Assembly: GCF_018459925.1 (NCBI RefSeq)
Contig: NZ_CP075371.1
Coordinates: 1,364,001 to 1,428,000 of the forward strand
Source: Nocardioides aquaticus
Lineage (GTDB): Bacteria; Actinomycetota; Actinomycetes; Propionibacteriales; Nocardioidaceae
Reading direction: 5' to 3'
Length of the DNA: 64,000 bases
The notes under the pieces are model-generated. The model had not been told where the DNA came from, searched no databases, and saw only the letters and a program-made list of their open reading frames with translations. Shown piece by piece: positions 1,076 to 64,000 of the stretch. Each line of letters begins with the position of its first letter. The stretch's first letter is position 1. A program made the position numbers and the translations under genes.

Positions 1076-1795
1076 TCAGACGCTCGAGCTGTCACCGCCC
1101 TCGCGACGGTCGCGCACCGCCCTGACGGCCATGACGACGGCCCGCACGTCGTCACCGATGCTCTCGAGCAGCTCGTCGCGCCGACGGTCGGCCTCCCTGA
1201 CCCGGCCCCTCGGCACGAACAGCGAGCACGGGATGCCGACGTGGAGGGCCACGACCAGCAGCGCGGTCCGCTCGTCCGGCACCGCCTCGCCCAGCAGCGC
1301 GCTGCGGATCCTGGCCACGACCTCCTCGCGGCCCGCGGTGGCGGTGGGGAGGAGGCGACGCCTGGGCAGGACGCCGAGCACCCGGTGCGTCTCGTCGACG
1401 AGCAGGCCCTGCCCGACCAGCTGCTCGATCAACCGCTCGTCGCTCGGCATGACCGACACGTAGCGGGCGAGCCTCTTCCCGAACCCGGCGGCTTCGAGGC
1501 TCTGCAGGGCCTCGTCGAGGACCGGGTCGCCGAGCGGGGTGGAGTCGCGGAGGGTGTAGCGGAGGGCCTTGCCGGTGCCGGAGACCGTGAACCTCCCCTC
1601 GTGGGCCAGCTCCAGCAGGACCGCGGCGGCGACCACGTACCTGGCGTTGCTGTTCCAGCGCCTGCCGGTGGCCGGGTTGATCGCCGCCAGCAGCGCCTGC
1701 CTGGCCAGAGGGGCCACGGTCCGGTCCAGGGGCGGGGAGTGGGCTGTGGTGGGCCTGTTCGTGGAGCCGAGAGCCCTGCGAAGTCGTGTCAGCAC
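1076..1795 (-). CDS. GPP34 family protein, copy 1
   Basis: The 239-residue product shows the pattern of the Golgi phosphoprotein 3-like (GPP34) family: a helical core with LLAAINPATG, then VVAAAVLLELAHEGR, a beta hairpin, LGDPxLDxAL and a C-terminal PDERTALL helix. Eukaryotic members bind phosphoinositides and glycosyltransferases; bacterial roles are not established. The GTG at 1795 is chosen over the longer frame (to 1831) because AGGGAG lies about 10 bases upstream and the N-terminus then matches its paralogs (VLxRLRRALG). It follows copy 2 by 81 bases, so it is probably the last gene of the RHS transcript. Confidence 0.75.
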   Translation of the reverse strand: MLTRLRRALGSTNRPTTAHSPPLDRTVAPLARQALLAAINPATGRRWNSNARYVVAAAVLLELAHEGRFTVSGTGKALRYTLRDSTPLGDPVLDEALQSLEAAGFGKRLARYVSVMPSDERLIEQLVGQGLLVDETHRVLGVLPRRRLLPTATAGREEVVARIRSALLGEAVPDERTALLVVALHVGIPCSLFVPRGRVREADRRRDELLESIGDDVRAVVMAVRAVRDRREGGDSSSV

Positions 1796-1876
1796 CGGTG
1801 AGCCACTCCCTGATCTCGTTGACGTCCGCAAGGGCGGAGGTACCTGCGCCGACCCGGTCTCGGGGCCGGCCGCCCG

Positions 1877-2611
1877 CTAGACCCCGGAGCTGTCGCCGCC
1901 ACCGCTGTCGGTCCTGTCGCGTGCCGCCCTGACCCCCAGGATGAGCGCGCGGTCGGCGTCCCCGAGGCCGGCGAGGATCTCGTCGGCGCGTCGGTAGGCC
2001 TCGTCGACCCTGTCCTTCTCCACGAAGAGCTTGAGGTGCACCCCGATGGTGACGACCGAGACCAGCAGGGCGGTACGACGGTCCGGCACCGACTCCCCGA
2101 GGAGGGCGCTGCGCAGGCGCGCCACGATCTCGTCCCGCCCCGCCGCGGGCGTGATCTCGAGGACCCGGCTGGTGAAGACACCGAGCCTCGTGCGAGACCC
2201 CTCCAGGAGCACGCCCTGCCCGACCAGGCGCTCGACGACCTGCTCGGCGCCGGGCAGGAGCCACACCGTCCTGCTCACCTTCTGCTCGCCGCTGTCGATC
2301 GCGAGGCGGGAGAGCGCCTTGTCGAGCTCGGGGTCGCCGAGCGGCGAGGTGTCCGTCACGGTGATCCGTGTCTTCCTCCCCTCGCCGGACACCACGACCC
2401 GGCCCTCGCTCACCAGGTCCGCGAGGAGCGCGGCGGCGACCGTGTAGTCGGCGTTGACCCCCGGCTTGCCACTGCCGGGGTCGATCGCGGCCACGAGTGC
2501 CTCCAGCGCCAGGGAGCGGGTTGCGCGCTCGGGCGTTGGCTCGGGCGTGACCCGCCTCGCAGGTCCTGGCTCATCCGGGACACCGATGGCCTTGAGCAGA
2601 CGCTCGAACAC
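1877..2611 (-). CDS. GPP34 family protein, copy 2
   Basis: The 244-residue product is diverged from copy 1 but keeps the same core: ALVAAIDPGSG, a helix ending LVSEGR, LGDPELDKAL, a VERLVGQGVL segment and PDRRTALL near residue 180. A good ribosome binding site (GGAGG) precedes the GTG start. It begins only 42 bases after the RHS gene and is almost certainly co-transcribed with it. In polymorphic-toxin loci this position is normally taken by the immunity gene, so an antidote role is possible, but this is inference; no immunity function is known to me for the family. Confidence 0.75.
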   Translation of the reverse strand: MFERLLKAIGVPDEPGPARRVTPEPTPERATRSLALEALVAAIDPGSGKPGVNADYTVAAALLADLVSEGRVVVSGEGRKTRITVTDTSPLGDPELDKALSRLAIDSGEQKVSRTVWLLPGAEQVVERLVGQGVLLEGSRTRLGVFTSRVLEITPAAGRDEIVARLRSALLGESVPDRRTALLVSVVTIGVHLKLFVEKDRVDEAYRRADEILAGLGDADRALILGVRAARDRTDSGGGDSSGV

Positions 2612-2653
2612 GGTGACCTCCTCTCTGCGGCTGGACGTGGTGACGGGATCCGA

Positions 2654-8023: not shown

Positions 8024-8075
8024 GGGGGTGCTCCCCGCGCGTCGCCTCGTGCGAACCGGTCCCGTACGTCCCCAT
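8016..8075 (-). CDS. Possible 19-residue leader peptide overlapping the RHS start
   Basis: An ATG at 8075, preceded by the purine-rich GAGGGAGAG, opens a 19-codon frame (begins MGTYGTGSHE). Its TGA (8018-8016) lies just inside the RHS gene, whose GTG start is at 8023. The overlap would couple translation of the two. The frame could equally be chance, since nothing else supports it. Confidence 0.3.
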   Translation of the reverse strand: MGTYGTGSHEATRGEHPRG

Positions 8076-8093
8076 GCCGTGCTCTCCCTCTGG

Positions 8094-8366
8094 TCGTGTC
8101 CCGAGCGTCGCCGCCGGGGCACAGTGTCACCCCTCGCCCGTGTGGCCGCTTCCCCTCACGCCGAAGTCGGTAGACCGGTCTGGACGGGCTCAGGCACAGA
8201 GGCCGGCGGCCAGGCGGGTGCCGGGTGCGTCCGGGCCGCTGCCCCCGGCGCCTCCCGGGCTCCCGGACGGCGTGCCGGTGGGGGTCCCGACGTCGTCGGC
8301 CGCGGTGAGGCTGCCCTCGGTCAGGCCGCCGCCGAGGGGGCGGTCGGCGCGGATGAGCTTCCACAG
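8094..8366. repeat. Segmental duplicate of 10232-10538 (LCP 3' end plus promoter region)
   Basis: This block closely matches 10232-10538: both begin CGTGTCCCGAGCGTCGCCGCC, continue through the same leader DNA and share the last codons of the LCP gene, with small indels and substitutions. The match ends abruptly at about 8366, where the sequence switches to the remnant of the small membrane protein gene. The block now serves as the upstream region of the RHS gene. Confidence 0.85.
8190..8366 (-). pseudogene. Remnant of the LCP gene 3' end
   Basis: Read on the minus strand this gives WKLIRADRPLGGGLTEGSL, the proline/glycine-rich tail and the final LAAGLCA stop, almost the same as the C-terminus of the intact LCP protein at 10326-11587. 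The frame and stop are kept, but the catalytic part and start are absent. A 14-residue stretch of the tail is missing and there are a few substitutions. It is a relic of the duplication, not an expressed enzyme. Confidence 0.85.
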
Positions 8367-8590
8367 CCATCGTCGCCGCCGTCGTCTGGTTCGCGCAGCT
8401 CGGCGACAGCGTGCAGGACCGGCGGGTCGACCTCAACGCCCGCTACGAGGAGCAGATCGACATCACGGGCTACCCGGACGGGAGCGGTGGTCGTGACTAC
8501 CGGATCGTGATCGACGGCACGACGCGCGACGACTGCTCGGAGGACGACGGTGTCCTGAACTGCGTCGACGACCCCCGACCCACCGAGCAG
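8366..8590 (+). pseudogene. 5'-truncated copy of the small membrane protein gene
   Basis: From about 8366 the plus strand reads a short hydrophobic stretch (AIVAAVVWFAQ) and then a sequence matching residues 50-106 of the protein at 697-1017, including LNARY, the DGSGG turn and the ending DDPRPTEQ. The N-terminus is replaced by LCP tail DNA, with a stop codon at 8354 just upstream. The native TAG after PTEQ has become CTGAGG, so the frame runs on to 8755, antisense to the GPP34 gene. Loss of both ends marks it as a pseudogene. Confidence 0.8.
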
Positions 8591-8678
8591 CTGAGGTCGG
8601 CGGGGCGGGAGCGCCCGCGGTCCCGAGCAGCCGCGGCGGCACGTATGCGGCCCGCCGGACCCGTCAGACGCTCGAGCC

Positions 8679-9383
8679 TCAGTCGCTCTGGTTGCGGTCG
8701 CGCACGGCGGCGACGGCGGAGACGATGGCCAGCCCGTCGTCCCCGATCCCGTTGACGATCTCCAGCCACCGGCGGTCGGCGTCCTTGGCCCGGTCCCTCG
8801 GCACGAAGAGCTTGCTCGGGGTGCCGAGGAGGAGCGCGGCGAGGAGCAGGGCCGTCCGGTCGTCGGGCACCGACTCACCGAGCAGCGCGGCCCGGACCCG
8901 GGCGACGACCTCGTCCCGGCCCGCGGCGGGAGTCGGGTCCAGCCGGCGGGTCGGGATGACCCCGAGCGTCCTGCCGGTCCCCTCGAGCAGCAGCCCCTCG
9001 GCGACCAGGCGCGTGGCGACCTGGTCGTCGCGGGGGAGGAGGATGACGTTCCGCGCCACCGTGCGCCCGACACCTCCGGCGTCGAGGCCACGCAGCGCGG
9101 AGTCGAGGTCGGGGTCCCCGAGCGGGGCCGAGTCGAGGACCCGGTAGCGGGCCTTCCTGCCCGCGCCCGCGACCGAGATCCTGCCCTCGTGCGCCAGCTC
9201 CAGCAGGACCGCGGCGGCGACCACGTACCTGGCGTTGTTGTTCCAGCGTTTGCCGGTGGCCGGGTTGATCGCGGCCAGCAGCGCCTGCCTGGCCAGGGGG
9301 ACCACGGTGCGGTCCAGGGGCGGGGAGTGGGCCTCGGTGGGACGGTCCGTACCGCCCAAGGCCTTGCGCAACCGCTGCAGCAC
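8679..9383 (-). CDS. GPP34 family protein, copy 3
   Basis: The 234-residue product is a close paralog of copy 1: it shares RTVVPLARQALLAAINPATG, the helix NARYVVAAAVLLELAHEGR, PLGDPDLDSALRGL and PDDRTALLLAALL. The GTG at 9383 is preferred over the frame start at 9428 because GGAGG lies 7 bases upstream and the N-terminus VLQRLRKALG aligns with copy 1. It follows copy 4 by 97 bases, probably as one transcript. The pair copy 3/copy 4 mirrors the pair copy 1/copy 2. Confidence 0.75.
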   Translation of the reverse strand: MLQRLRKALGGTDRPTEAHSPPLDRTVVPLARQALLAAINPATGKRWNNNARYVVAAAVLLELAHEGRISVAGAGRKARYRVLDSAPLGDPDLDSALRGLDAGGVGRTVARNVILLPRDDQVATRLVAEGLLLEGTGRTLGVIPTRRLDPTPAAGRDEVVARVRAALLGESVPDDRTALLLAALLLGTPSKLFVPRDRAKDADRRWLEIVNGIGDDGLAIVSAVAAVRDRNQSD

Positions 9384-9480
9384 GTCGTTACCTCCGGGAT
9401 CGGTCGGGACGGTCGGGGCGGTCGGCATACAGCAGCACGAAGGGCCGGGGTCACCCTGGACGCGGCCGGGGCGCCACGGG

Positions 9481-10194
9481 TCAGAGCGTCGTGCTGTCGG
9501 CGTTGCCGCTCACGACCGCAGCCTTGATCGCGGCGACGAGTCTCTGCTCGTGCTCCGGCAGGCCCTCCAGGATCTCCCGGGCGCGGCAGTCGGCCGCCTT
9601 GACGTGCTGCCGGCCGACCCAGTGCTTGAGGTTCGTGCTCGACAGCAGCACCACGACCAGCATCGCGGTCCGCTCATCGGGCACCGACTCGCCGAGCAGG
9701 GCGCTCCGCAGACGCCCCACGACCTCGTCCCGTCGCGCCGAGGGCGCGGGGTACCGGCGGGTGACGCTGAACATCCCGAGCTTCTGCTGCGACTCCTCCG
9801 TGACCTCGTCGGCGGCGACGAGGCGGTCGAGGACCTGGTCGGACGTGGGGAGGAGCTCGACCAGGCGGGACACCTTGTTCCCGAACACCCCGGTCTCGAC
9901 GGCCAGCAGCGCGTCGTCCAGCTCGGCGTCGCCGAGGGGGGTGAGGTCCCGCACGGTGACGCGTGACTTCCTGCCGTCCCCCGAGACCTCGAGCCGTCCC
10001 TCCCGGACCAGCTCGAGCAGGAGCGCCCCGGGCACGGCGGCGCGACCGAACGGCATGAGCTTACCCTCCTCGGGGTCGAGCGCCGCGACCACCAGGTCAC
10101 GCGCGACCGACGGGACTCCGCGCGGGGGTGCCGCGGTGAAGCTCTCCTCGGCGTCCTCGAGGGCCTCCCGTGCCTTGCGCAGCCGACCCAGCAT
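9481..10194 (-). CDS. GPP34 family protein, copy 4
   Basis: The 237-residue product is the most diverged of the four, with an acidic N-terminal helix (residues 5-20), VVAALDPEEGK, LLLELVREGR, PLGDAELDDAL, QVLDRLV and PDERTAMLVVVLL. The ATG at 10194 has GGAGG upstream. It is the first gene of the second GPP34 pair and lies 131 bases beyond the LCP gene. Its upstream DNA (10232-10325) is the block duplicated in front of the RHS gene, so both operons may share the same promoter type. Confidence 0.72.
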   Translation of the reverse strand: MLGRLRKAREALEDAEESFTAAPPRGVPSVARDLVVAALDPEEGKLMPFGRAAVPGALLLELVREGRLEVSGDGRKSRVTVRDLTPLGDAELDDALLAVETGVFGNKVSRLVELLPTSDQVLDRLVAADEVTEESQQKLGMFSVTRRYPAPSARRDEVVGRLRSALLGESVPDERTAMLVVVLLSSTNLKHWVGRQHVKAADCRAREILEGLPEHEQRLVAAIKAAVVSGNADSTTL

Positions 10195-10231
10195 CCGTGT
10201 ACGTCCTCCTGCCGCGCTTCCCCGTCCGGCC

Positions 10232-10538
10232 GTGTCCCGAGCGTCGCCGCCGGCGGCCAGTGTCACCCCTCGTCCGGGTGGCTGCTTCCCCTCACGCCGA
10301 ACTCGGTCGACCGGTCTGGACGGGCTCAGGCGCAGAGGCCGGCGGCCAGGCGGGCCGTGCGCTGGGCCTCGGACTGGCCCGGGTCGGACTCGGGGACCCG
10401 GGTGCCGGGTGCGTCCGGGCTGCCGCTGGGCCCTCCCGGGCTGCCGGACGGCGTGCCGGTGGGGGTCCCGACGTCGTCCGCGGCGGTGAGGCTGCCCTCG
10501 GCCAGGCCGCCGCCGAGGGGGCGGTCGGCGCGGATGAG
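10232..10538. repeat. Parent copy of the segmental duplication at 8094-8366
   Basis: This holds the region upstream of GPP34 copy 4 and the last 70 or so codons of the intact LCP gene. It is taken as the parent copy because the LCP gene is complete here. The duplicate lacks an internal piece of the tail (about 10357-10398). Confidence 0.8.
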
Positions 10539-11587
10539 CTTCCACAGCTGGTCGGCCTGGTCGGTCCAGACCAGGCGGTTGGGATCGGGCTCGTAGGCCG
10601 CGATCGGCACCGTGATGAAGCTGATGTCGGTCAGCCCGGTGTCGCGGAACTGCATCGACAGGTCGACCAGGCGCCCGATGGAGTCGAGGTCCTCGTCGAC
10701 GACGATCGACGACGTCGCGGCGTCGAGGAAGTCGAAGACCCGGGTCGGGCGCGAGAGCGTGCCGGCGGAGACGACCTTGTTGACCATGGAGGCGATGAAC
10801 GCCTGCTGCCGCTTCATCCGGCCGATGTCACCGGTGGCCGACAGCACGGTCCGCTCGCGGACGTAGTTGAGGGCCTGCTGGCCGGTCAGGGTCTGCACGC
10901 CGGCGTCGAAGTAGATGTCGTGCTCCGGGTCGACCACGTCCTCGGGGATGCACACCTCGACGCCCTTGACGGCCTCGACCATGTCCTTGAAGCCGTTGAA
11001 GTCGAGCACCATGTAGTGGTCGATGTAGACCCCCGTCAGCGACTCGACCATCTGCACGGTGCACTGCGGGCCGCCGAGCGCGAAGGCGGTGTTGAACATC
11101 TGCAGCTCGCCCCCGGGCACCATCCCGTCCTCGGTGCGGCAGTCGGGCCGCGTCACCAGCGCGTCCCGGGGCAGGCTCACGCCGTACGCCTCCTGCCGGT
11201 CGGCGGAGACGTGCAGCAGGATCGTGGTGTCCGACCCACCGCCGCCGGACTCGCCGTCGATCGAGTTGCCCTCGCCCTCGCGGGAGTCCGACCCCATCAC
11301 CAGCACGTTCATCGGCTGCAGGTCGGCCTCCTCGTCCTCGGCCGGGGCCTGGACGAGGTGGTTGATCGCCTCGCCCTCGGCGATGTTGCCGTCGAGGCTG
11401 CGGTAGGCGAGCACGACGACGAGCGCGGTGACCATCGCGAGCACGACCTGGCTGGCCAGGATGACGGTCCACAGGCGCCGGCGGTGGTGCGGCGCGACGG
11501 GGGCGGCGGTGCCGGGGGACGCGGCGCTGGGGAGGGGGAAGCAGACGCGCCGGCACCGGCCGGCGTCCGCTCGTCGTCGACGGCCAC
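10326..11587 (-). CDS. LytR-CpsA-Psr (LCP) family wall polymer ligase, probable frameshift near N-terminus
   Basis: LCP enzymes move lipid-linked glycopolymers onto peptidoglycan at the outer face of the membrane. The sequence shows one membrane helix (LWTVILASQVVLAMVTALVV), then the LCP core: VLVMGSDSR, GGSDTTILLHV, SLPRDALV, a FNTAFALGG segment and ALNYVRERT. The tail is proline/glycine-rich. The frame has no usable start upstream of the helix. The only good start, GTG at 11587 (MAVDDERTPAGAGA), lies in another frame; one missing base in a C-rich stretch (about 11500-11540) would join them. This is either an assembly error or a real mutation. Confidence 0.8.
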
Positions 11588-16105: not shown

Positions 16106-16705
16106 ATGGACGCGTTCACCTCGCACACCGGCGTCGGCGTGCCGCTGCGCCGCAGCAACGTCGACACCGACCAGATCATCCCGGCCGTCTACCTCAAGCG
16201 GGTCACGCGCACCGGCTTCGAGGACGGCCTGTTCGCCGCCTGGCGCGGCGACGCCTCCTTCGTGCTCAACCAGCCGGCGTACGCCGCCGGGTCGGTCCTC
16301 GTCGCCGGTCCCGACTTCGGTACGGGGTCCTCGCGCGAGCACGCCGTGTGGGCGCTGCAGAACTACGGCTTCCGCGCCGTGATCTCCTCGCGCTTCGCCG
16401 ACATCTTCCGCGGCAACTCCGGCAAGGCCGGGCTGGTCGCCGCCCAGGTCGACGAGAAGGTCGTCCAGCGGTTGTGGGACCTGCTCGAGGCCGAGCCGGG
16501 CGCCACGATCACCGTCGACCTGGAGTCGCGCACGGTGCGTGCCGGGGAGGGCCCCGACGCCGTCGAGGACTCCTTCGACATCGACGACTACACGCGTTGG
16601 CGCCTGCTCGAGGGGCTCGACGACGTCAGCATCACGCTGACCCACGACGAGGACATCTCCGCCTTCGAGTCCGGCCGCCCGGTCTGGAAGCCCGCCCTGA
16701 CCTGA
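16106..16705 (+). CDS. leuD: 3-isopropylmalate dehydratase small subunit
   Basis: The 199-residue swivel subunit partners LeuC. The features are the start [32 protein letters not shown], the phosphate-binding loop [14 protein letters not shown] and the segment [14 protein letters not shown]. Length is standard. It ends 10 bases before the stop of a convergent GNAT gene, with no evident hairpin between them. Confidence 0.97.
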
Positions 16706-16715
16706 CCCGGCCCAC

Positions 16716-17450
16716 TCACCGCAGCGCGAGCTGGGTGCACCACGGCTCGAAGCCCAGCCCCTCGGCGACGGCGAGCGAGGCCCGGTTGTCGCTGCGGGCC
16801 CGCCACCGGGCCAGGCCGTGGTGACGCACGGCGTACGCCGCCGCGTGCCGGCCGACCCGGGCGCCCAGGCCCTGGCCGCGCCACGACGGCGCGACCAGCA
16901 CCCCCACGTCACGCGGGGCGCCGTCGAAGGGCGTGAGGTTCGCCGCCGCGACGACCGTGCCCGCGACCACCACCGCGAAGCAGTGGTCGGTGAGCGGGTC
17001 GACGTCCCGGAACCCGGACTCGCCCCACGCGCCCGGCCCCACGCGGTCACGCAGGTCGGTGAGGTCGCGGGGGTCCCAACGACGCACCTCCGGGCTCCCG
17101 GCCGCCAGTGGTGCCGGCGGTGCGCCGGTCGGGTCGTGGTCCAGGTAGGCGTGCACCGAGGGGCCGACCACCCGCAGCCGCCGCTCCCGCGCCAGGGTGC
17201 GCCAGGCCGAGGGCTCCGTACGCCGCCGGGCGTCGTCGAGGAGGTCGTCCTCGGGCTCCTGGGCCCCGGGTGGCAGGGACACGTGGAGGCCGCCTCCCGC
17301 GGACCAGACCACCCACCAGCCGCCGTAGACCGAGAGCGGGCTCGTGGGGGAGTGCGGACGGACCGTGGTGCCGCACCACAGCTCGTCGTCGGGCACACCG
17401 AGCACCCGGGACCACCACCGCTCGACCGAGCGCACCGACCTCTCGCGCAC
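16716..17450 (-). CDS. GNAT family N-acetyltransferase
   Basis: The 244-residue protein has a C-terminal GNAT fold, with DVGVLVAPSWRGQGLGARVG as the acetyl-CoA binding motif A and a following NRASLAVAEGLGFEP segment. The first 110 residues are a separate Trp-rich domain (ERWWSRVLGVPDDELWCG) seen in actinobacterial GNAT proteins. The substrate is unknown. GTG 17450 is chosen since the upstream frame is low-complexity Arg/Gly and the domain begins soon after. It is divergent from hup. Confidence 0.78.
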   Translation of the reverse strand: MRERSVRSVERWWSRVLGVPDDELWCGTTVRPHSPTSPLSVYGGWWVVWSAGGGLHVSLPPGAQEPEDDLLDDARRRTEPSAWRTLARERRLRVVGPSVHAYLDHDPTGAPPAPLAAGSPEVRRWDPRDLTDLRDRVGPGAWGESGFRDVDPLTDHCFAVVVAGTVVAAANLTPFDGAPRDVGVLVAPSWRGQGLGARVGRHAAAYAVRHHGLARWRARSDNRASLAVAEGLGFEPWCTQLALR

Positions 17451-17552
17451 CCCGGCACCGTAGCCCCGGCTCGTCGCACCGGCGGGTCCTCCCTCCCACC
17501 GCCGCCGGCGCCCGCCGAGGCGGTGAGCCGACAAGGACGGTCCCTCGGGTCG

Positions 17553-17582
17553 TTGTGGAGCGGCCCCGCACATCCCTAGGTT
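17553..17582 (+). promoter_or_regulatory. Probable hup promoter
   Basis: TTGTGG (17553-17558) and TAGGTT (17577-17582) are separated by 18 bases, a good match to the housekeeping sigma consensus of actinobacteria (TTGNNN, TANNNT). This leaves a leader of about 50 bases that carries AGGAAGG (17624-17630) before the hup GTG. Confidence 0.6.
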
Positions 17583-17638
17583 GCACGGGACGCCGGTCAA
17601 CAACGTCCGACGGGCACTGCTCCAGGAAGGACACCACC

Positions 17639-18592
17639 GTGAACAAGTCTCAGCTCATCGACACGCTCGCCGAGCGTTTCGAGGGGAACCGCAAGCAGGC
17701 GACGCACGCCCTCGACTCGGTCCTCGACACCATCACCCGCGAGGTGGCCAAGGGCGAGAAGGTGGCGATCCAGGGGTTCGGGTCCTTCGAGAAGAAGGTC
17801 CTCGGCACCCGCAAGGGCGCGAAGAAGCAGGCCGGCAAGAAGTCCTCGTCGGGCACGCAGGAGGCCGTGCCGAGGTTCAAGCCGGCCTCGGACCTCAAGG
17901 CCGTCGTGTCCGGGGTCAAGAAGCTGCCCGAGCTGACGGTGGCCGCCGGCTCCTCGGCGGTCTCGGTCGCGACCGCCCCGGCGCGTGCCGCGGCCAAGGC
18001 GGCTCGCAAGACCGTGAAGGGGTCGTCCAAGAAGAAGACCGCCGCGGGGAAGGCGTCCACCGCCGCGGAGGCGGCGACCGAGGCCGGTTCCGCCGCCGCG
18101 GGTAGTGCTGCGGTCGAGGCCCAGAAGACCGCCGCCGCGGCGAAGAAGGCCGCCGCCTCGGTGACCGAGACGTCGACCGCGAAGAAGGCGCCGGCGAAGA
18201 AGGCGACGGCGAAGAAGGCGACGGCGAAGAAGGCGACGCCCGCCACGAAGGCGCCGGCGAAGAAGACCACGGCGAAGAAGACCGCGGCGACGACGTCGAC
18301 CGCAGCCGGGTCCACGGCGAAGAAGTCGGCACCGGCGAAGAAGTCCACGCCGGCGAAGAAGGCCACGTCCACGACGTCCTCCAGCCCGGCGCCGGCGAAA
18401 AAGGCCACTCCGGCGAAGAAGGCCACGCCGGCCAAGAAGGCCACGTCGGCGACGCCGGCCCCGTCGACTACGCCAGCCCCGACGACCTCCGGTGGGTCGA
18501 CGTCCGGCGGCTCCACGACCGACGGTTCAGGCAGCGGGACCGGTTCCGCTGCGTCCCCGACGCCGAGCGGCGGTGGCGGCTCGTCCAGCTGA
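17639..18592 (+). CDS. hup: HU-type nucleoid protein with a long Lys/Ala-rich histone-like tail
   Basis: The 317-residue protein begins with a normal HU fold of about 95 residues (MNKSQLIDTLAERFEGNRKQ; IQGFGSFEKKVLGTRKG). About 200 residues follow, dominated by AKKA/PAKK repeats, then a Ser/Gly/Thr end. Mycobacterial HupB has a comparable, shorter tail; here the tail is unusually long. HU bends and compacts DNA and the tail probably adds non-specific binding. The GTG at 17639 has AGGAAGG nine bases upstream. The tail is built of near-repeats, so its length may vary between strains. Confidence 0.93.
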   Translation: MNKSQLIDTLAERFEGNRKQATHALDSVLDTITREVAKGEKVAIQGFGSFEKKVLGTRKGAKKQAGKKSSSGTQEAVPRFKPASDLKAVVSGVKKLPELTVAAGSSAVSVATAPARAAAKAARKTVKGSSKKKTAAGKASTAAEAATEAGSAAAGSAAVEAQKTAAAAKKAAASVTETSTAKKAPAKKATAKKATAKKATPATKAPAKKTTAKKTAATTSTAAGSTAKKSAPAKKSTPAKKATSTTSSSPAPAKKATPAKKATPAKKATSATPAPSTTPAPTTSGGSTSGGSTTDGSGSGTGSAASPTPSGGGGSSS

Positions 18593-56066: not shown

Positions 56067-57875
56067 TCACTCGATCAGGCGTACGGGGTCGCCCGCGATG
56101 TTGGCGTCCCACGTCGTGAAGTCCGTGACGTTGGAGCCGGAGAAGTTGGTCTCCACCTGGAACCAGCAGCCGCCCAGGGTGGCGGGGTTGCAGCTGTAGT
56201 CCTCCGGCAGCGGGATCACCATCTGCTGGATCTTGCCGTTGTGGGTGGAGGCCTTGACCGGGACCGTGCACTCACCGAGGTTGGTGTAGGCCGCGTCGCC
56301 GAGAGCCCCCCGGCACCCCGGCACCGAACCGCCCGGCCCGGACCTGATCGAGCCGGTGGCGTCCGGCGGCGCGATCACCCGGACGCTTCCGCCGGTGCCC
56401 GTGGACCCGTCGGCGGCGTCGAAGAAGTCGAAGGCGATGTACTGCCCACGGGCGGAGGGCAGCGCCCGGATCAGGTTGAACCGCGCCCGGCTCGAGGGCG
56501 CGTTCTGCAGCACCGGCATCCTGCTGTATCCCGCGACGGCGACGTCGTCGCGCAGGTCGGCGCGCGACGGCACGACGCGCAGCGCGAAGGAGTTCAGGCC
56601 GGTCGTCGTGCTGACGTTGCCGTCGCGGCTGCCCGCCGAGGCGTTGTCGCGCCACACGACCGGGTCGAAGCTGCGCCCCGACTCGTTGCTGTTCGTCACC
56701 GCCGTGCCGCCCGGGCTGCGGTTGGTCCGGACCTGGAGGTAGTAGTTCCCGGCCATGGTCGGGGTGAAGCTGCACAGCTCGACCCACTGGTGGAAGACGC
56801 GCGCGAGCTCGGGGTTGAACCCGGCGTAACGGGTCTTGCTGCCGGTGGGCTGTGTCCACTGCCGCAGCTCCTCGCTCGCGACCTGGGTGCGACGGCCCTC
56901 GAACTGCTGGGTGCAGCCGGAGACGACCTCGGACTTGAGCGGATCGCCGGTGGCGTTGGGCTGGCGGACCAGGAAGGTGGTGTCGAGGGGCTGTCCCACG
57001 GGGTCGGAGCTGGCGCGCGGGTTGTAGTCGCCGGAGCAGTAGATGCTGGTGGCGTCGGCGTAGCGGGCCGCGCCGGCGGTCGGGGTGTAGTCGCTCATCC
57101 GGTCCGCGACGTAGCGCTGGTCGATGTCGCCGCACGCGACGCCGGTCTCGACGTAGGCCGGGTCGTAGACCTGCACCGCCAGGCTCCTGCCCACGGCAGC
57201 GGGCTCGACCCGCAGGGCGAAGAAGTAGCCCTCGGGGCGGTACTCGGAGTTCCGGCCGGGCACGCAGTTCTCAGCGGTGGAGCACGGCATGGTGCCGTAG
57301 CGGTCGCCCTGCACCTTGTCCGTGCCGGGGCCCTCCACCGCGGCCCAGAACTGCGGGTTCGAGCTGCAGTTGGGGAAGGGCGCCGCAGGAAGCGCGGTCC
57401 CGCTGGGCTGGGCCGCGCCGGCCGTGCTCGGTGGCTCGTTGCCGAAGGTGTTACAGGGGCTTCCCATCGGGGCGGGCGCGGTGTAGTCGGCGAGTGCGGT
57501 GCGCGTGACCTGGGCCGTCGGGCTCCCGATCGCGGCGCCGAAGGTGTTGTCCACGGTGGTGGTGATGGTCACCCTCAGCTGGCTGGACACGTCACCCTCG
57601 TCCACCTCCACGGTCGTGCCGCCACCAGCGGCATAACCGTTGACCGCCGCGATCCGGCGGGCGGTGGTCGTCGCCTGGCCGAGGTTGCCAGGCATCCAGG
57701 TGACCGCCGAGAGCGCCGCGGCGTCGGCGGCCCGCTGCACCCGACCGGCCTCCCGGTAGAGCATCCCGATGTCGACGGCGATCGCGGCCATCCCGATCAG
57801 GACCGTCGGCAGCAGGACCGCGAACAGGATGGCGGCCACCCCTGCCTCGTCACGCCTCCGTGGCGGGCGCGTCAC
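56067..57875 (-). CDS. TadG-like pilus/secretion-associated protein, first copy
   Basis: The 602-residue protein begins with the Tad/TadG N-terminus: GVAAILFAVLLPTVLIGMAA followed by AVDIGMLYREAGRVQRAADA. About 550 residues of extracellular Ser/Thr/Gly-rich sequence with many cysteines follow; I do not recognise that part. Its GTG overlaps the stop of the TadE-like gene by four bases. Tad systems build Flp pili; no motor ATPase or platform gene is in the window. Confidence 0.8.
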   Translation of the reverse strand: MTRPPRRRDEAGVAAILFAVLLPTVLIGMAAIAVDIGMLYREAGRVQRAADAAALSAVTWMPGNLGQATTTARRIAAVNGYAAGGGTTVEVDEGDVSSQLRVTITTTVDNTFGAAIGSPTAQVTRTALADYTAPAPMGSPCNTFGNEPPSTAGAAQPSGTALPAAPFPNCSSNPQFWAAVEGPGTDKVQGDRYGTMPCSTAENCVPGRNSEYRPEGYFFALRVEPAAVGRSLAVQVYDPAYVETGVACGDIDQRYVADRMSDYTPTAGAARYADATSIYCSGDYNPRASSDPVGQPLDTTFLVRQPNATGDPLKSEVVSGCTQQFEGRRTQVASEELRQWTQPTGSKTRYAGFNPELARVFHQWVELCSFTPTMAGNYYLQVRTNRSPGGTAVTNSNESGRSFDPVVWRDNASAGSRDGNVSTTTGLNSFALRVVPSRADLRDDVAVAGYSRMPVLQNAPSSRARFNLIRALPSARGQYIAFDFFDAADGSTGTGGSVRVIAPPDATGSIRSGPGGSVPGCRGALGDAAYTNLGECTVPVKASTHNGKIQQMVIPLPEDYSCNPATLGGCWFQVETNFSGSNVTDFTTWDANIAGDPVRLIE

Positions 57876-58504
57876 GGGTGGGTCCCGGCAGCACAGGTGA
57901 GCGCGGGCAAGGGCTCGAAGGTGAACACCGCGGAGTCGCTGACATCGAGGCCGGCGCCGAACAGACCCGTGATGAAGTCGTGCCGGGCGCGTAGGTAGAT
58001 GCCGACCGTGTCGGGAGAGGAGTTCACACAGGCGTTGATGGTCGCCGAGGCCCAGGCGCCGTCGAGGTAGCGGAACTGGTCCCGGGCCGGGACCCACCGG
58101 AACCGCACGCAGTTCACCGTGCAGGTCCACTCGTCGTTGCCGGCCGCGCCGGGGAACCCCTGCGGGTTGGCCCGGAAGACCCAGAGCTCCTGGACCGAGT
58201 CCTCGGGCAGGGCGCTGCCCGAGGTCTGGACGGCGTTGGCCGCCATCTGAGCCAGCATCGGGGCGTTGGCGGGTGTGCACGGCGCGGTGCAGTCCCCACC
58301 CTCGTTGACGCCGGCAGGCCCGGCCCCGGCCAGGGCCGAGGCCACCCGGCCGCCTGCCCGGACGCTCGAGGTGACCGCGAGGGAGTCGCGCAGCAGCAGG
58401 GACATCTCGATGATGCCGAAGACCAGGAGCATCAGGATCGGGATGACCAGGGCGGCTTCGACGGCGACGGCCCCGCGCTCGCTCGCTGGTCGTCTGGTGC
58501 GCAT
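57872..58504 (-). CDS. TadE-like membrane protein, first copy
   Basis: The 210-residue protein has the TadE-like motif RGAVAVEAALVIPILMLLVF, a prepilin-like helix, followed by an extracellular domain with six or so cysteines (CTAPCTP, CTVNCVRF). ATG 58504 is chosen since the motif follows within 12 residues; the longer frame upstream is low-complexity. It is the first gene of the minus-strand pair and overlaps the TadG-like gene. Confidence 0.85.
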   Translation of the reverse strand: MRTRRPASERGAVAVEAALVIPILMLLVFGIIEMSLLLRDSLAVTSSVRAGGRVASALAGAGPAGVNEGGDCTAPCTPANAPMLAQMAANAVQTSGSALPEDSVQELWVFRANPQGFPGAAGNDEWTCTVNCVRFRWVPARDQFRYLDGAWASATINACVNSSPDTVGIYLRARHDFITGLFGAGLDVSDSAVFTFEPLPALTCAAGTHP

Positions 58505-58846
58505 CGCGTCCTTCGTCGTCGCCGGTCGGGGGGTCCCGGGTCCGCGCAAGTCTGGCGGAGGGGACAGTCGGGGTGGGCGAGAACTGCGGAACCAGGATGC
58601 CGAGAAGGCGCGACAGCAAGGGCGGTCCAGACCAGGCGCCGTCGGCAGGCGGGCGCGGCTCGGTCTGGTGACCGAGACCGAGATGCCGGCCGGGTGCATC
58701 ATCTGCGCAGGTCAGAGCGGGTCCGGCAAGGGCTGGGCGAGGTCGCGGTGGCAGGACGACGGTTCCGGGGACGGAGGGCGGGACGACTCCTAGCCTCACG
58801 GGTGAGGTGACCCCCGCGCCTCGCCGTCCTCCCTCGAGGTGCCTCG
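58505..58846. promoter_or_regulatory. 342-base divergent region between the two TadE-like genes
   Basis: No gene is evident here. It must hold promoters for both Tad-like pairs. TAGCCT (58791-58796) is a possible -10 for the plus-strand pair. A short dyad CTCGGTC/GACCGAG lies near 58662-58679 and CCTCAC/GTGAGG near 58794-58807. Confidence 0.45.
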
Positions 58847-59350
58847 ATGTCCACTCCGCCTCCGCCGGCGCCCACGCGCACGCGCCGCCCCCGCGTACGC
58901 CGCGGTGACGACCGCGGTGCCGTCGCCGTCGAGTTCGCGCTGGTGATGCCCCTGCTGCTGGTGCTGCTCTTCGGCGTCATCGGCTACGGCTACATGCTCT
59001 CGTTCCGCCAGGGCATCAGCCAGGCCGCGGCGGAGGGGGCGCGTACCGCCGCGGTGCTGTCACCCTCCGACCCGGCCGTCGCCGGCAAGACCCGGGACGC
59101 CGTCAACGGGGCGCTGGGCAGCTACGGGGTCACCTGCGCCAGCAACGGGGCGCTGATGAAGGGCGCGAGTCCGGCGGGGACCTGCACGATCAGTGCCCGC
59201 AGGCCGTGCAGCAACGCCGCCACCTCCCAGTGCGTCGAGGTCTCGCTGGCCTACACCTACCGCGACGACCCGCTCCTGCCCTCGTTCCCCGGTCTCGGCG
59301 TCGTGCTGCCCGAGCAGTTGGCGTACTCGACCGAGGCGCAGGTGAACTGA
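58847..59350 (+). CDS. TadE-like membrane protein, second copy
   Basis: The 167-residue protein has an Arg/Pro-rich start and the TadE motif RGAVAVEFALVMPLLLVLLF, then FRQGISQAAAEGARTAAV and a cysteine-containing outer domain (CASNG, GTCTIS, PCSNA, QCVEV). It resembles the first TadE-like gene in motif but not in the outer part. It is followed by its TadG-like partner after one base. Confidence 0.87.
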   Translation: MSTPPPPAPTRTRRPRVRRGDDRGAVAVEFALVMPLLLVLLFGVIGYGYMLSFRQGISQAAAEGARTAAVLSPSDPAVAGKTRDAVNGALGSYGVTCASNGALMKGASPAGTCTISARRPCSNAATSQCVEVSLAYTYRDDPLLPSFPGLGVVLPEQLAYSTEAQVN

Positions 59351-59351
59351 G

Positions 59352-61084
59352 GTGTCCGGAGGTCCGCGGTCCCGGCGCGAGCGGGACGAGCGCGGGGCCG
59401 TGCTCGCGATCGTCGGCGCCGCCCTCACCGTAATCGTCCTGGTCGCCGCCTTCGCCGTCGACCTCGGGGTGCAACGGGTGGTGCGGCGTGACATGCAGGC
59501 GCTGGCCGACGTGGTCGCGCTCGACCTCGCCCGCGAGATCGACGGACGGACACGGGCGCAGCTGGCCGGGGAGGGGCAGCAGACGAGCCCGAGCAGCGCG
59601 CTGGCGCTGAGCCTGGCCCGCAACGACGACACGATCGGCGACGACCTGGCGGTGGCCGTGAGCTGGGGTGCCTGGGACGGGGAGACGTTCGACGTCACGG
59701 TCGACCCGCCGTCCGCGGTCCGGGTGGTCGCCTCGGCCACGACCGACTTCGCCTTCGCGCCGGGCGAGGGGGGTGCGACCCGCACCGCGTACGCCGAGGC
59801 CGACTCGACCGCGTGCTACCAGCTGGGCTCGTGGGCCGCGGCGGTCCGCTCGGGGACTCGAGCCTGCTCGGCCCGCTGAACGGTCTCCTCGGGCTGAACC
59901 TGGGCCTGCTCGGCTACCAAGGCATGGCCCAGGCCGACCTCCGCCTCGCCCAGCTCGCCGCCGAGCCCCGGATCGGCAGCGAGACCCGGCTGCTGAGCTC
60001 GCCGATCGCGTACGGCGACCTCGTGCAGGCCAGCATCGACGCGCTGCGCAAGGAGGACGACCCGACCAACGAGGCGGCGATCCAGGCGCTCGGGGTGCTG
60101 CTCGGGGCGTCGGCCGGCCTCCCCGCGGTCACCGTGGGCCAGGCGTTGAGCATCGCGGCGGGGGACTCGGCGGCCCTGGACACCGACCTCAACCTGCTCG
60201 ACGTCCTGGCCGGGTCGCTGGCAGCGGCCAACGGCCGGCGCGCCCTGGAGATCCCGAACCTGCAGATGGGCGTGCCCGGGATCGGCAACGTCACGAGCAC
60301 CTCCTTGGGGGTGCAGCAGGGTCTCAGCCTGGCCTGCGGCACGCCGGGCTCGATCGAGTCGCGGGCGACGTCGAGCCAGGTCGACGGGACGATGGACATC
60401 GACTTCGCCAACCTTCCCAGTGTCGGTCTGGACTTCGGCCTGGTGAAGGGGACCCTGCAGACCACCAAGGCGACCGGCTCGCTCACGCTGAACCTCGGCG
60501 GCGCCACCGGTCAGCTCGTCTCGCCGCCCCCGGTGACCTGCGGGGGTGGGACCAGCGCCGCGCCCGACACCTTCACCGTCCGGGTCGGCACGTCCCTGGC
60601 CTCGTACCGGCTGGTGTCGGACGTGAGGGTCCGGGGCAAGGTGTCGGTGGGCACGGGCTCGCTCAAGGTGGACGCCCTGGTCGACCTGACGGTGCGCCTG
60701 TCGATGGGAACGGGGAGCGGCCCGGCCGGTGCCGACGTCCCGCTGTCGATCCCACCGAACGACACCGTGCCGCGCCAGACCGGCGGCGCCGCGGCCCTGC
60801 TCGGCCCGGTCGTCCCGCAGGTCCTGACGAGCTCGGTCGACGTGAGCCTGCCGCTGGGCCTCGGGATCGGCCTGGGCGCGCTGAAGGCGGGCATCGTGGA
60901 CGCGGTGGTCGCGGACCTCACCGCGGCGACGGGCGGGTTCACCGTCAAGACGCTGAACCCGCTCGCCGCCAACATCGACCAGTACCTCGTCGGGCCGGTG
61001 GCCCGGCTGCTGGGACTGCGGCTCGCCGGTGCCGACGTGTACGCCGTGAACGCCGTCTGCGCGAACCCGCGACTGACCGGCTGA
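59352..61084 (+). pseudogene. TadG-like protein, second copy, frameshifted
   Basis: The N-terminus has the Tad motif RGAVLAIVGAALTVIVLVAA and DMQALADVVALDLAREIDG. The first frame ends at 59879 soon after STACYQLGSWAAAVRSG. The natural continuation DSSLLGPLNGLLGLNLGLLG lies in the next frame and runs to 61084. One extra G in the GGGG run at 59852-59855 would restore a single protein of about 577 residues. Either the assembly lacks a base or the gene is broken. The C-terminal part is Leu/Gly/Val-rich with no known domain. Confidence 0.8.
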
Positions 61085-61176: not shown

Positions 61177-61205
61177 ACGGGCGAGCCTGTGCCGGAGGAG
61201 GCGTG

Positions 61206-61574
61206 ATGACGACGACGGCAGCGAGCAAGCAGGCCCTGGGTGCCTACGGCGAGCAGGTGGCCCTGCGACACCTGGTGGAGCAGGGGATGGTCCTGCTGGA
61301 CCGCAACTGGCGGTGCAGCGAGGGGGAGATCGACCTCGTCTTGAAGGACGGTCCGGCCCTGGTGGTGTGCGAGGTCAAGACCCGGTCGAGCCTGGTGTGC
61401 GGGTCGCCGCAGGAGGCGGTCGGGGTGGTCAAGCTGGAGCGCCTGGCCCGGCTGGCCGAGCGGTGGCGCGAGGAGCGCGGCGTGCACCCGCCCGAGGTCA
61501 GGGTCGACGTCGTGGCGGTGCTGCGCGGCCCGCGTGGCGCCGCGCAGGTCGAGCACGTCCGCGGCGTGGTCTGA
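61206..61574 (+). CDS. yraN: YraN family (UPF0102) nuclease-fold protein
   Basis: The 122-residue protein has the restriction-endonuclease-like fold of UPF0102: ALGAYGEQVALRHLVEQGM, RNWRCSEGEIDLV and ALVVCEVKTRSS, with the D...ExK acidic site. The exact role is unknown. GGAGGAGG precedes; ATG 61206 is preferred to the adjacent GTG at 61203. Its last base overlaps the comM start. Confidence 0.93.
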   Translation: MTTTAASKQALGAYGEQVALRHLVEQGMVLLDRNWRCSEGEIDLVLKDGPALVVCEVKTRSSLVCGSPQEAVGVVKLERLARLAERWREERGVHPPEVRVDVVAVLRGPRGAAQVEHVRGVV

Positions 61575-62530
61575 TGCCGTTCGCCACGGCCCGCACCGTC
61601 TCGCTGCACGGCGCGGTCGGCCACCTCATCGACGTCCAGGCCGACGTCTCGCCCGGCCTCGTGGGGACCACCCTGGTCGGCCGTCCGGACGCCTCGCTGA
61701 ACGAGGCGCGGGACCGCTGCCGGATGGCGGTGATCAACTCCGAGCTCCCGTGGCCCTCGACCAAGCGGATCACCGTGCTGCTCTCGCCGGCCGACCTGCA
61801 CAAGCGCGGCACCCACTTCGACCTCGCGATCGCCGTCTCGGTGCTGGCCGCCGACGACAAGCTCCCGCGTGCGGGGCTCGCGGCGACCGCGTTCATCGGG
61901 GAGCTGACGCTCGCCGGCCAGCTGCGCCCGGTCACCGGGGTCCTGCCGATGGTCCTGGCGGCCGCCGAGCGCGGGGTGCGTCGGGTCGTGGTCCCGGAGC
62001 CTCAGGCGCAGGAGGCGGCGATGGTGCCCGGGATGAGCGTGCTCGGCCTGCGCTCCCTGTCCCAGGTGGTCGCCGAGCTGCGGGGAGACCCCGTCCCCGA
62101 GGCGGCCCCGGTCGCCGCGATGTCGGGCTCACGGCTCCTGTCGTGGCGCGGCGAGGAGCGGATGGAGGCCCTCGACCTCGCCGACCTCCGCGGCATCGAG
62201 GACGCCAAGTACGCCGTGGAGGTCGCCGCCGCCGGTGGCCACCACCTGATGCTGTCCGGCCCCAAGGGGGCCGGCAAGACCAGCATCGCCGAACGGATCC
62301 CGTCGCTGCTGCCTCCGCTCAGCGCGGCGGAGTCGCTCGAGCTCACCGCGATCCACAGCCTGGCCGGCACCCTGGACCCGGCCACGGGCCTGATGGTCGA
62401 CCCGCCGTACGCCGCCCCGCACCACGACGCCAGCAAGAGCGCCCTGATCGGGGGCGGGTCGGGGCAGGTCCGTCCCGGGGAGATCAGTCGCTGCCACGGC
62501 GGTGTCCTGTTCCTGTACGACATATCTTAA
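61574..62530 (+). pseudogene. comM: ComM/YifB AAA ATPase, interrupted in Walker B
   Basis: ComM is a hexameric helicase that extends branches during natural transformation. Residues 1-314 match the family: the Lon-like start (FATARTVSLHGAVGHLIDVQ), RDRCRMAVINSELPWP and Walker A SGPKGAGKTSIAE (about 227). The frame then reads HGGVLFL where Walker B should continue with Asp-Glu, but goes on YDIS and stops at 62530. Usual length is about 500, so 40 percent is missing. The break at 62515 coincides with a drop in GC content, which points to an insertion, not point decay. Confidence 0.9.
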
Positions 62531-64000
62531 CCCGTTTGTCTCCCGCCCTAGCGCCTTCAGTCGAAACGCCTACCCGTCTAGCGACAGCACCGCCCACCTC
62601 TTGGCAACGCGGCCCGAGCCCCGCCGGCGAAGGCGCGAGGGTTGGAGGCTCGTCACAACTTCACCTGCCCGGGGGCGCCGGCCGGGTCCAGGTGCCCTAG
62701 CGGACGACCGCGCGCACCTTCTTTGAAGCCGCTGTGGCGGTGTCGCTGCCGGAGTACTTGACGACGAAGGTCTGTGGGCCACGCCGACCCCGGTACGCGT
62801 AGGACATCGTCGCGGGCGTCGAGGTAATGCGGTACTTCGCCAGTTGCTTCGTGCCGCGGAGGATTCGCAGCGTGCCGCCTGGGTTCCGTACCCCTGGCGT
62901 CGTGACGCGGCTCTTGAGAATCACCTTGCCGACGCGCTCGCGAGCGGAAACTTGCAGTTCCGACTTTGCCGTTACCGCAACGGGTGCGGAGAAGGCGACA
63001 CCGCTCTGGTGCCCGGGGAGGCGGGCAACCTCCCGGACGCTGATCTCCCGGCATCCCCGGTCGCCGACGCTCCACGTCGTACCGCCGTTGTAGGTGTAGA
63101 CGCCGTCGCAGTACCAAGAGAACTCGCGCGACGTCGGTTTCTTGTTCCACTCGCCAGGCACCGCCTCGACCCAGCCCGACGGCGTGACACTCCCGGCGAT
63201 CGTGGGAGGGGCGACGTTGACGAGTCGGTACTCAGGGAGGTATTCGAGTGCGACGTTCTTATTTGAACCGAAGGATCCGAAAGTGGTCACGGTGGTCGCT
63301 TCACTCTGCGTCGCCGCACCTGCATACCATTGTTCGACGATAGTCTCGCCGGTGAAGCGGACCTGAACATCTCCAAGGCTTATGTACCCGATGCCTGGAA
63401 GTATGTAGTACCCCGACGCGGAGGTCGTCCCGCGGGAAACGACGCGGGAGCCTTGAAAGGCAGTCACAGTTACGCCCTCAATGGCCACATCGCTCTGGTC
63501 CGTCACATAACCGCTAATCGCTTTTCCCCCTTGCAGGGCAACATCGACGCCGTAGCGCGCCTCATCCTTCGCTACCGTCAGGAACGTGGCGTCTTCCGGG
63601 AGGGCACCGCCCCCAAGGAATGCCCCTTCGTATGCCTCGCCGAAGTTGTTCCGCATGGGCTCGCTCTTGACTGTCACTGGCACGTTGGCGGGCACGGTGA
63701 GGGAATAGTCCTGTGTCTTGCCTGCCCTGCTCTCGCTGTTCGAGAGCGGCACCACCTGCCCGCGGTCAAGCGCGTAGGCTTGCGCCGAGCCATCTAGTGG
63801 AGCGTCGAAGGAATTGGTCACCTTTCCGAGCAATCGGCCGACTTCCGGATAACGGAGGTCAATTCCGGAAAGAGTCTGCTCGGCATCAACCTGAACTGCG
63901 GGACTAGTCTCCTCTGAGAACGCCTCGCCTGCCCAGATGTCGAACTTGCGTGTGTCGTTTAGGTCCGCCCGAACCTTCACGGGCTCTTCGGTATTGAGGC
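62514..64000. mobile_element. Left edge of a probable element/island inserted in comM
   Basis: From the comM break on, base composition and codon use change: more A/T, codons such as TTA, ATA and TAT, and no actinobacterial gene-overlap style. If the element starts with TGT (62514-62516), the five bases before it (GTTCC, 62509-62513) would be the target copy. CTAGCG occurs three times in the first 190 bases (near 62548, 62577 and 62698), a possible end repeat. comM is a known target of Tn7-like Tn6022/AbaR islands in Acinetobacter. No transposase is visible in the part seen. Confidence 0.6.
62697..64000 (-). CDS. Large surface-type protein with Ig-like/carboxypeptidase-regulatory repeats (5' end beyond window)
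   Basis: At least 434 residues are visible and the frame stays open to the window edge. It looks like stacked beta-sandwich domains: GRLLGKVTNSFDAPLDGSAQ, AISGYVTDQSDVAIEGVTVT with ASGYYILPGI (carboxypeptidase regulatory-like), then VAPPTIAGSVTPSGWVEAVP and a C-terminal Ig-like repeat ending ASKKVRAVVR. Such proteins are exported and often bind the cell surface or matrix. No sorting signal is seen at the C-terminus. Base composition is well below its neighbours, which suggests transfer with the comM insertion. Confidence 0.75.
   Translation of the reverse strand, partial: LNTEEPVKVRADLNDTRKFDIWAGEAFSEETSPAVQVDAEQTLSGIDLRYPEVGRLLGKVTNSFDAPLDGSAQAYALDRGQVVPLSNSESRAGKTQDYSLTVPANVPVTVKSEPMRNNFGEAYEGAFLGGGALPEDATFLTVAKDEARYGVDVALQGGKAISGYVTDQSDVAIEGVTVTAFQGSRVVSRGTTSASGYYILPGIGYISLGDVQVRFTGETIVEQWYAGAATQSEATTVTTFGSFGSNKNVALEYLPEYRLVNVAPPTIAGSVTPSGWVEAVPGEWNKKPTSREFSWYCDGVYTYNGGTTWSVGDRGCREISVREVARLPGHQSGVAFSAPVAVTAKSELQVSARERVGKVILKSRVTTPGVRNPGGTLRILRGTKQLAKYRITSTPATMSYAYRGRRGPQTFVVKYSGSDTATAASKKVRAVVR

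What the first reader, a model, noticed from the sequence alone, without database searches (positions are those of the whole stretch)
62495..62700. comM interrupted in Walker B by foreign DNA
comM is intact up to HGGVLFL and then stops as GC content drops. comM is the chromosomal target of AbaR/Tn6022 Tn7-like islands in Acinetobacter, also near its ATPase core. A targeted island in an actinobacterial comM would be a notable parallel and would switch off a transformation gene.
Basis: partly seen in the sequence, partly recalled or inferred. Interest (0 to 1): 0.7.

Follow-up and report, generated by a model that had tools for sequence, protein, structure and literature searches.

The report
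Phage satellite inserted in comM
A 14.8-kb phage-parasite-like DNA element has inserted itself, probably with its own serine integrase, into the catalytic core of a soil bacterium's DNA-uptake gene comM; the target gene is a known favourite, but the element carries its own DNA-packaging motor and no recognisable shell genes, a combination I did not find described.

Summary
In detail: comM stops after HGGVLFL at window 62515, and the rest (DEFPLFRSDVID...) resumes 14,848 bp further on in the same single 4.58-Mb contig. A sister species has the gene intact. The insert is not Tn7/AbaR-like: a large serine integrase lies near the right junction, the junctions share only a CCT core, and no tnsABC/tniQ gene or flanking 5-bp copy was found. 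Its 16 ORFs include a large terminase (TerL) with intact motifs, a primase/polymerase-helicase and a RelA/SpoT-type candidate defence gene, but no recognisable portal, capsid, tail or lysis gene. TerL relatives lie in similar compact loci at 14 other places in Nocardioides, Brevibacterium, Leucobacter and Pseudoclavibacter, with differing integrases; the five others with a serine integrase all split tadA, the Tad-pilus ATPase gene. I read it as a phage satellite. comM as a serine-integrase target is known (PMC10083194), and so is the idea that comM insertions block transformation (PMC4774983). What may be new is the TerL-without-capsid plan. No helper phage was identified. Two apparent frame breaks leave current activity open.

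The parts
61574..62515 (+). comM 5' part (residues 1-314, ends HGGVLFL, first half of Walker B)
   Evidence: Pfam Mg_chelatase PF01078 1.5e-39 and ChlI PF13541 5.1e-34; DNA read
62513..62514 (.). inferred crossover CT of attL; the three bases CCT (62512-62514) are shared with attR at 77360-77362 in window+ numbering (outside the window)
   Evidence: alignment with intact comM of G236
62516..62530 (+). element-derived end of the truncated comM frame (YDIS stop)
62515..64000 (.). left end of the 14,848-bp element; it runs on beyond the window to 77361 in window+ numbering (genome 1441361)
62697..64000 (-). gene for a 617-aa secreted-looking protein with carboxypeptidase-regulatory-like domains (start lies beyond the window, at about 64550)
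   Evidence: PF13620 2.3e-13; no PHROG match

Best explanation
The insert is an integrated phage satellite (a PICI-like chromosomal island) of 14.8 kb. Its large serine integrase recombined a circular form (attP) with an attB formed by the Walker B codons of comM, crossing over in CCT, probably at CT, and splitting the gene (the junction sequences show it; the reaction was not tested). The element replicates with its own primase/polymerase-helicase when a helper phage is present, and uses its own large terminase to load its DNA into the helper's heads (inferred). Its RelA/SpoT-type gene serves as anti-phage cargo (inferred). Splitting comM should lower chromosomal integration of transformed DNA, which removes one way in which the host could cure itself of the element (inferred from published models).
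For: att anatomy with an intact sister gene. The integrase has resolvase and recombinase domains and a sub-threshold zinc-ribbon match, and starts 0.4 kb from attR. An integrase 55% identical sits in G051 at the same comM site, with junctions that fit the same CT core. TerL has ATPase and nuclease motifs and its family profile matches solved TerL structures (5tge 8.3e-13, 6z6d 4.6e-9). Primase: phrog_11515 9.1e-34. No recognisable capsid, portal, tail or lysis gene among 16 proteins. RelA/SpoT gene: PADLOC PDC-S33 5.1e-104, phrog_4773 1.9e-80. Primase, Zn-Cys protein and TerL recur together at most of 15 places with swapped integrases. Five contig lengths (97067, 130554, 9732, 6159, 11467) recur in both the TerL and the primase hit lists, as if both genes shared contigs.
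Against: No helper phage was found: TerL is 24.7-31.1% identical to the 12 phage records it matches among 50,697, and the Zn-Cys protein has no match there. No small terminase, capsid-interference gene or master repressor was recognised in this copy, and about half of its proteins match no described family, so an unrecognised structural gene cannot be excluded. The primase has no Pfam match and looks frame-broken near its start, on weak alignments; the comM 3' part is in a different frame from the sister's after LETG. Either the assembly has indel errors or the copy is decaying. Excision, induction and packaging are untested.
Confidence: 0.7

Rival explanations
1. A decaying prophage that lost its head, tail and lysis genes and happens to keep terminase, primase and integrase.
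For: Two apparent frame breaks, one in the element and one in the comM 3' part. In the same genus a 53-kb insert, prophage-like by eye, sits in comM of G227, and other small comM elements hold single phage morphogenesis genes among the ORFs scanned (capsid in G051, tape measure in G198).
Against: The same gene set recurs at 15 distinct places in four genera with different integrases and target sites, which random decay would not readily give. TerL keeps its catalytic motifs.
Confidence: 0.2
2. A Tn7-like or AbaR-like transposon island targeted to comM.
For: Same target gene; a low-GC left edge.
Against: No tnsABC/tniQ match in 16 proteins. No flanking 5-bp copy; the junctions share CCT only. 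CTAGCG is not present at the right end. A serine integrase lies near the right junction.
Confidence: 0.01
3. An integrative mobilizable or conjugative element (IME or AICE) of actinobacteria.
For: AICEs and IMEs can use serine integrases and primase-type replication genes (recalled).
Against: No TraB/FtsK translocase or relaxase match among 16 proteins; a phage terminase is present instead.
Confidence: 0.04
4. The insertion is a reversible switch: regulated excision by the integrase restores comM, as recalled for prophages in Listeria comK.
For: Serine integrase junctions are in principle exactly reversible; the comM frame resumes at DE right after the junction.
Against: The comM 3' part differs in frame from the sister species further downstream, so excision alone might not give a working gene unless that is an assembly error.
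Confidence: 0.08

Closest known systems
Large serine recombinase elements in magnesium chelatase/comM genes (Durrant et al. 2022, PMC10083194, passages read)
   Same: Same enzyme class and same target gene; the paper says homologs of this gene are targeted by 12.4% of predicted site-specific integrases.
   Different: The passages seen do not describe element content; here it is a terminase-bearing satellite-like element.
sr1WO prophages of Wolbachia in the magnesium chelatase gene (PMC9203015, passages read)
   Same: Recombinase-driven integration that splits this gene, with gene parts on both flanks.
   Different: Those are prophages; this is a 14.8-kb element without recognisable structural genes.
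PICIs and PICMIs
   Same: Small size, integrase, replication gene, a packaging gene, candidate defence cargo, no recognisable structural genes.
   Different: [quoted passage not shown] this family encodes the large one. PICMI: only the start of the abstract was seen (PMC10803314).
Capsid-forming PICIs and the Streptomyces satellites MulchRoom/MiniFlayer (PMC10690885, passages)
   Same: Encode their own TerL; actinobacterial cases exist.
   Different: Those also encode portal and major capsid protein; none was recognised here.
AbaR/Tn6022 Tn7-like islands in Acinetobacter comM
   Same: Same target gene (recalled; insertions in A. baumannii comM also in PMC4774983 passages).
   Different: Different recombination machinery (AbaR's recalled; Tn7-type genes tested as absent here).

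Membership tests
LSR-integrated element in comM | Integrase with resolvase catalytic, recombinase and Zn-ribbon domains near a junction | tested here: met
   PF00239 2.3e-24, PF07508 1.9e-17, PF13408 5.3e-5 (24 bits, just under its 25.3 cut-off); integrase starts 0.4 kb from attR
LSR-integrated element in comM | attL and attR share a short core only; attB recovered in an empty relative | tested here: met
   CCT shared; intact comM in G236
Tn7-like / AbaR comM island | tnsABC/tniQ genes | tested here: not met
   no such match in 16 proteins
Tn7-like / AbaR comM island | 5-bp target duplication | tested here: not met
   junctions share CCT; the longest shared word within 25 bp (CCTGTT) is not in register
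PICI-type phage satellite | compact element with integrase, replication gene and packaging gene, no capsid, tail or lysis genes | tested here: met
   absence means no match, and about half of the 16 proteins match no described family
PICI-type phage satellite | dependence on a helper phage for induction and particles | not testable with these tools
   needs infection or induction experiments
PICI-type phage satellite | divergent stl/str-like regulator pair (recalled) | tested here: inconclusive
   one weak HTH protein only (GntR PF00392 1.3e-4, below cut-off; phrog_836 E 0.02)
Capsid-forming PICI | own capsid, portal and protease genes | tested here: not met
   none recognised among 16 proteins
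AICE / IME | TraB/FtsK translocase or relaxase | tested here: not met
Complete prophage | structural and lysis modules | tested here: not met

The most novel reading that the evidence does not exclude
[quoted passage not shown] Their serine-integrase versions repeatedly home into the catalytic motifs of two genes of DNA uptake and pili, comM and tadA, so that one insertion both hides the satellite and shuts the pathway by which the host could cure itself, or the pilus through which phages might enter.
Probability: 0.3. Interest if true: 0.65.

Novelty: new variant of a known kind. Interest (0 to 1): 0.5.

Why it matters
comM as a landing site is known, so the insertion alone is a further example. 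What adds something is the resident: a recurring plan in which the packaging motor, not the capsid, is what the element brings, in a phylum where few satellites are described. If it works as inferred, it asks how a foreign TerL docks on a helper's portal. The mapped junctions give natural attB sites in comM Walker B and in conserved tadA motifs, and the comM/tadA pairing makes the idea that mobile elements shut down DNA uptake testable in actinobacteria.

Tried and rejected
Tn7/AbaR reading: rejected on content and junctions (see membership test). CTAGCG end repeats: three copies within about 155 bp at the left end and one internal site (read on both strands), none at the right end.

Crossover placed in ACGA (shared by attL, attR and attB): rejected, since it would put a Tyr codon in place of the Walker B Asp of the original gene. 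CCT fits attL, attR and attB together if the host's Leu codon was CTC, as in seven of the nine intact genes printed (the sister has CTG). The CT dyad in attP (6 of 8 positions) is reached by 1.5% of element positions, but over 12 positions by 14%: mild support only. For G051 the shared bases also allow a GA core.

TerS-like protein (about 200 aa, between the Zn-Cys protein and TerL): in 7 of 15 distinct loci by my ORF caller, not in this element. No Pfam, PHROG or credible PDB sequence match; profile comparison with a known TerS of G200 gave nothing. The model, made from the N. caeni copy (pLDDT 69.5), has no PDB match with E below 2; the best five BFVD matches are all named terminase small subunit, E 0.016-0.42, none below 0.001. 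Suggestive only. Zn-Cys protein: model from the N. caeni copy, pLDDT 81.5, pTM 0.49, no significant PDB fold match.

Helper search: TerL in viral contigs gave no hit with the single protein and 16 distant loci at 30% identity or less with the profile. Integrase tree (14 rows): G000 and G051 group (99/99); the deep forks are weak and comM and tadA integrases are mixed, so target choice was not mapped on it.

Literature: the listings showed no title or abstract start describing this family. Only the held open-access library was searched and most listed papers were not opened. The general satellite survey (10.1093/nar/gkad123) is not held and could contain members.

Full report
What was checked. 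comM is intact from window 61574 to 62515 and breaks after HGGVLFL; the frame then reads YDIS and stops. The genome holding the window is one contig of 4,580,814 bases, and the window is its 1364001-1428000. The Mg_chelatase C-terminal domain of comM lies at 1441677-1441979, 13.7 kb beyond the window's end. I fetched 1424001-1444000 as L002 (window coordinate = L002 + 60000). The remainder of comM resumes at L002 17364 with GACGAGTTCCCC, Asp-Glu-Phe-Pro.

Junctions. In the sister species G236 (comM protein 96% identical to the joined query) the gene is continuous, and DNA on the two sides of our insert aligns to it at 88% over 2450 bp and 91% over 2189 bp. attL reads GTTCCTGTACGACATATC, attR reads TTTCGTCCCTCGACGAGTTCCC, and the intact sister gene reads CTGTTCCTGGACGAGTTCCC. 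CCT is shared in register by attL, attR and attB and leaves the Walker B Asp codon intact; the crossover dinucleotide is probably CT. Core to core the element is 14,848 bp, 73.5% GC against 76.2% for the flanks in L002, with the low-GC part at its left end. There is no flanking 5-bp copy.

Content. I took 16 ORFs as likely genes (by composition, start and overlap, one from the sequence); all 16 were compared with Pfam and PHROGs. In window+ numbering, from left, with starts uncertain: 62697-64550(-) secreted-looking protein with carboxypeptidase-regulatory domains; 64825-64995 small; 64992-65774 and 65771-65956 Cys-rich proteins; 65956-67416 TerL (PF03354 5.3e-8; phrog_9 2.9e-28); 67891-68854 three small genes; 68992-71103 primase/polymerase-helicase (phrog_11515 9.1e-34; no Pfam match); 71306-71641 weak HTH protein; 71680-72618 unknown; 72667-74202 RelA/SpoT protein (PF04607 2.1e-12; PADLOC PDC-S33 5.1e-104; phrog_4773 1.9e-80); 74263-74613 and 74661-75536(-) unknown; 75594-76964(-) large serine integrase (PF00239, PF07508; phrog_95 7.5e-85); 76961-77395(-) small protein whose longest reading crosses the right junction, so its real start is probably inside. 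No protein matches a capsid, portal, tail, lysis, conjugation or Tn7 family. The integrase itself also hits an invertase family and, weakly, a family called transposase (phrog_6620, E 0.0042).

Relatives of the element. TerL was found in 5 of 215 genomes of the genus, this one included, and at 13 loci of named genomes. The genus of the window is Nocardioides: G208 and G106, same genus, have the contig lengths of Nocardioides sp. TF02-7 and N. caeni. By my ORF calls and clustering, the Zn-Cys protein is found at 13 of 15 places, a tyrosine integrase cluster at 8, the serine integrase cluster at 6, and at one (L107) the integrase was not classed; of the tyrosine cluster only one member was checked against Pfam. 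A primase/polymerase is seen at 14 of 15 (the cluster); the exception is L103. Domain searches were run on representatives only, so absence of structural genes is shown for the window's element and only in part for the others. Two tyrosine-integrase copies have a tRNA-Leu at the far end. One of them carries an EcoRI-type methylase and a GmrSD-type restriction protein directly after TerL. The TerL family alignment keeps Walker A-like and B motifs and the nuclease Asp residues (motifs recalled), and its profile matches solved TerL nuclease and ATPase domains. In the large protein searches, five contig lengths recur in both the TerL and the primase hit lists, which suggests, without proving, that the two genes lie together there too.

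Targets. In 215 genomes of the genus, comM was found in 210. I re-examined 12 that had split, weak or extra matches, and with G000 and G051 I read the junction DNA of six with an insert: G000 (14.8 kb), G051 (8.2 kb) and G198 (about 19.7 kb) at Walker B; G097 (about 11.2 kb) and G200 (about 10.5 kb) at the HFDLAIA motif; G227 (about 53 kb) at NPCPCGE. All six have a relative of our serine integrase beside a junction. G240 has its comM parts on two contigs and G191 only a 5' part in a fragmented assembly; both are unresolved. G208 and G211 are frame breaks, not inserts; G017, G214 and G235 have a full-length match plus an extra one; G205 has one nearly full-length match. Matches below those listed in the capped table were not inspected beyond these 12 genomes, so six is a lower bound. 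A genome of another family in the order (G091) also has a serine integrase after the Walker B break; its comM 3' part was not found in the 40 kb fetched. All these sites code for conserved motifs, which fits integrases that need a dependable DNA target. The small comM elements differ among the ORFs that I scanned: a capsid gene in G051 (PF05065 2.4e-36), a tape-measure gene and an OLD-like ATPase in G198, TerL and a weak head protease in G097, a small terminase and primase in G200. The five other serine-integrase TerL elements all split tadA (PF00437): one at Walker A (G036), one after VGEVRGAE (G220), and three near the LPDG/PF motif (B. casei, B. iodinum, Pseudoclavibacter).

Interpretation. 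Shown: an insertion into comM with serine-integrase-type junctions, and the gene content. Inferred: that the integrase did it, that the element is a satellite using a helper's heads, that the RelA/SpoT protein is defence cargo, and that comM loss lowers transformation. The last rests on published work: mobile elements in comM and competence genes as protection against curing (PMC4774983, passages read), and homologs of this gene as the target of 12.4% of predicted site-specific integrases, with competence genes enriched among targets (PMC10083194, passages read). sr1WO prophages in the same gene are described in PMC9203015 (passages). Satellite types were compared through PMC10690885 and PMC11389934 (passages); PMC10803314 only in the search listing. 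Searches for this family in print listed nothing that describes it by title or abstract start, but the library is partial.

Against. No helper is known; TerL is 24.7-31.1% identical to the 12 phage records it matches among 50,697, the integrase is 37-42% identical to the best-listed of 975 phage records, and the Zn-Cys protein has no match. The primase start lies in another frame than its apparent N-terminal continuation, on weak alignments, and the comM 3' part is in another frame than the sister's after LETG. In a GC-rich single-contig assembly these could be indel errors; if real, the copy may be inactive and excision alone would not restore comM. The rival reading as a decayed prophage keeps about 0.2.

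Verdict. The insertion belongs to a known kind (LSR element in comM). The element looks like a new variant of phage satellite: own terminase motor, no recognisable shell, modular integrases.

Noticed in passing
window 56067-59879: TadE and TadG-like pilus genes lie upstream of a UPF0102 (yraN-type) gene and comM (PF07811 1.6e-14 and 1.5e-10; PF13400; UPF0102 at 61203-61574), so comM here neighbours Tad pilus genes.
   Followed up: partly
L096 (genome 3658001-3678000), around 9400-11000: The same genome has another serine integrase, read in two frames, next to a tadA fragment and between two copies of a gene pair that looks like an insertion sequence by eye: perhaps a second, decaying LSR insertion in tadA.
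   Followed up: partly
L097 9359-10768 and L098 8709-10172: Two more serine integrases in the same genome. The one in L098 is followed by small genes and a 1040-aa protein that looked tape-measure-like by eye but matched no Pfam family.
   Followed up: partly
L076 (G051) 1500-9680: An 8.2-kb element at the same comM site, with the closest integrase (55%), carries a 546-aa capsid-family protein, the only structural match among the three non-integrase ORFs that I scanned.
   Followed up: partly
L093-L095 (G227): A 53-kb insert, prophage-like by eye, sits in the NPCPCGE codons of comM, with a RelA/SpoT-family protein close inside its left end (PF04607 3.4e-19).
   Followed up: partly
L002 16961-17395 and L042 4850-5041: A small protein next to the integrase is shared (55% over 65 aa) between the comM element and a tadA element whose integrases are only 27% identical; a candidate directionality factor.
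   Followed up: no
L089 (G198) 16606-18183: OLD-like ATPase in a comM element (PF13304 5.5e-14; TOPRIM match below cut-off): another defence-like cargo gene at this site.
   Followed up: no
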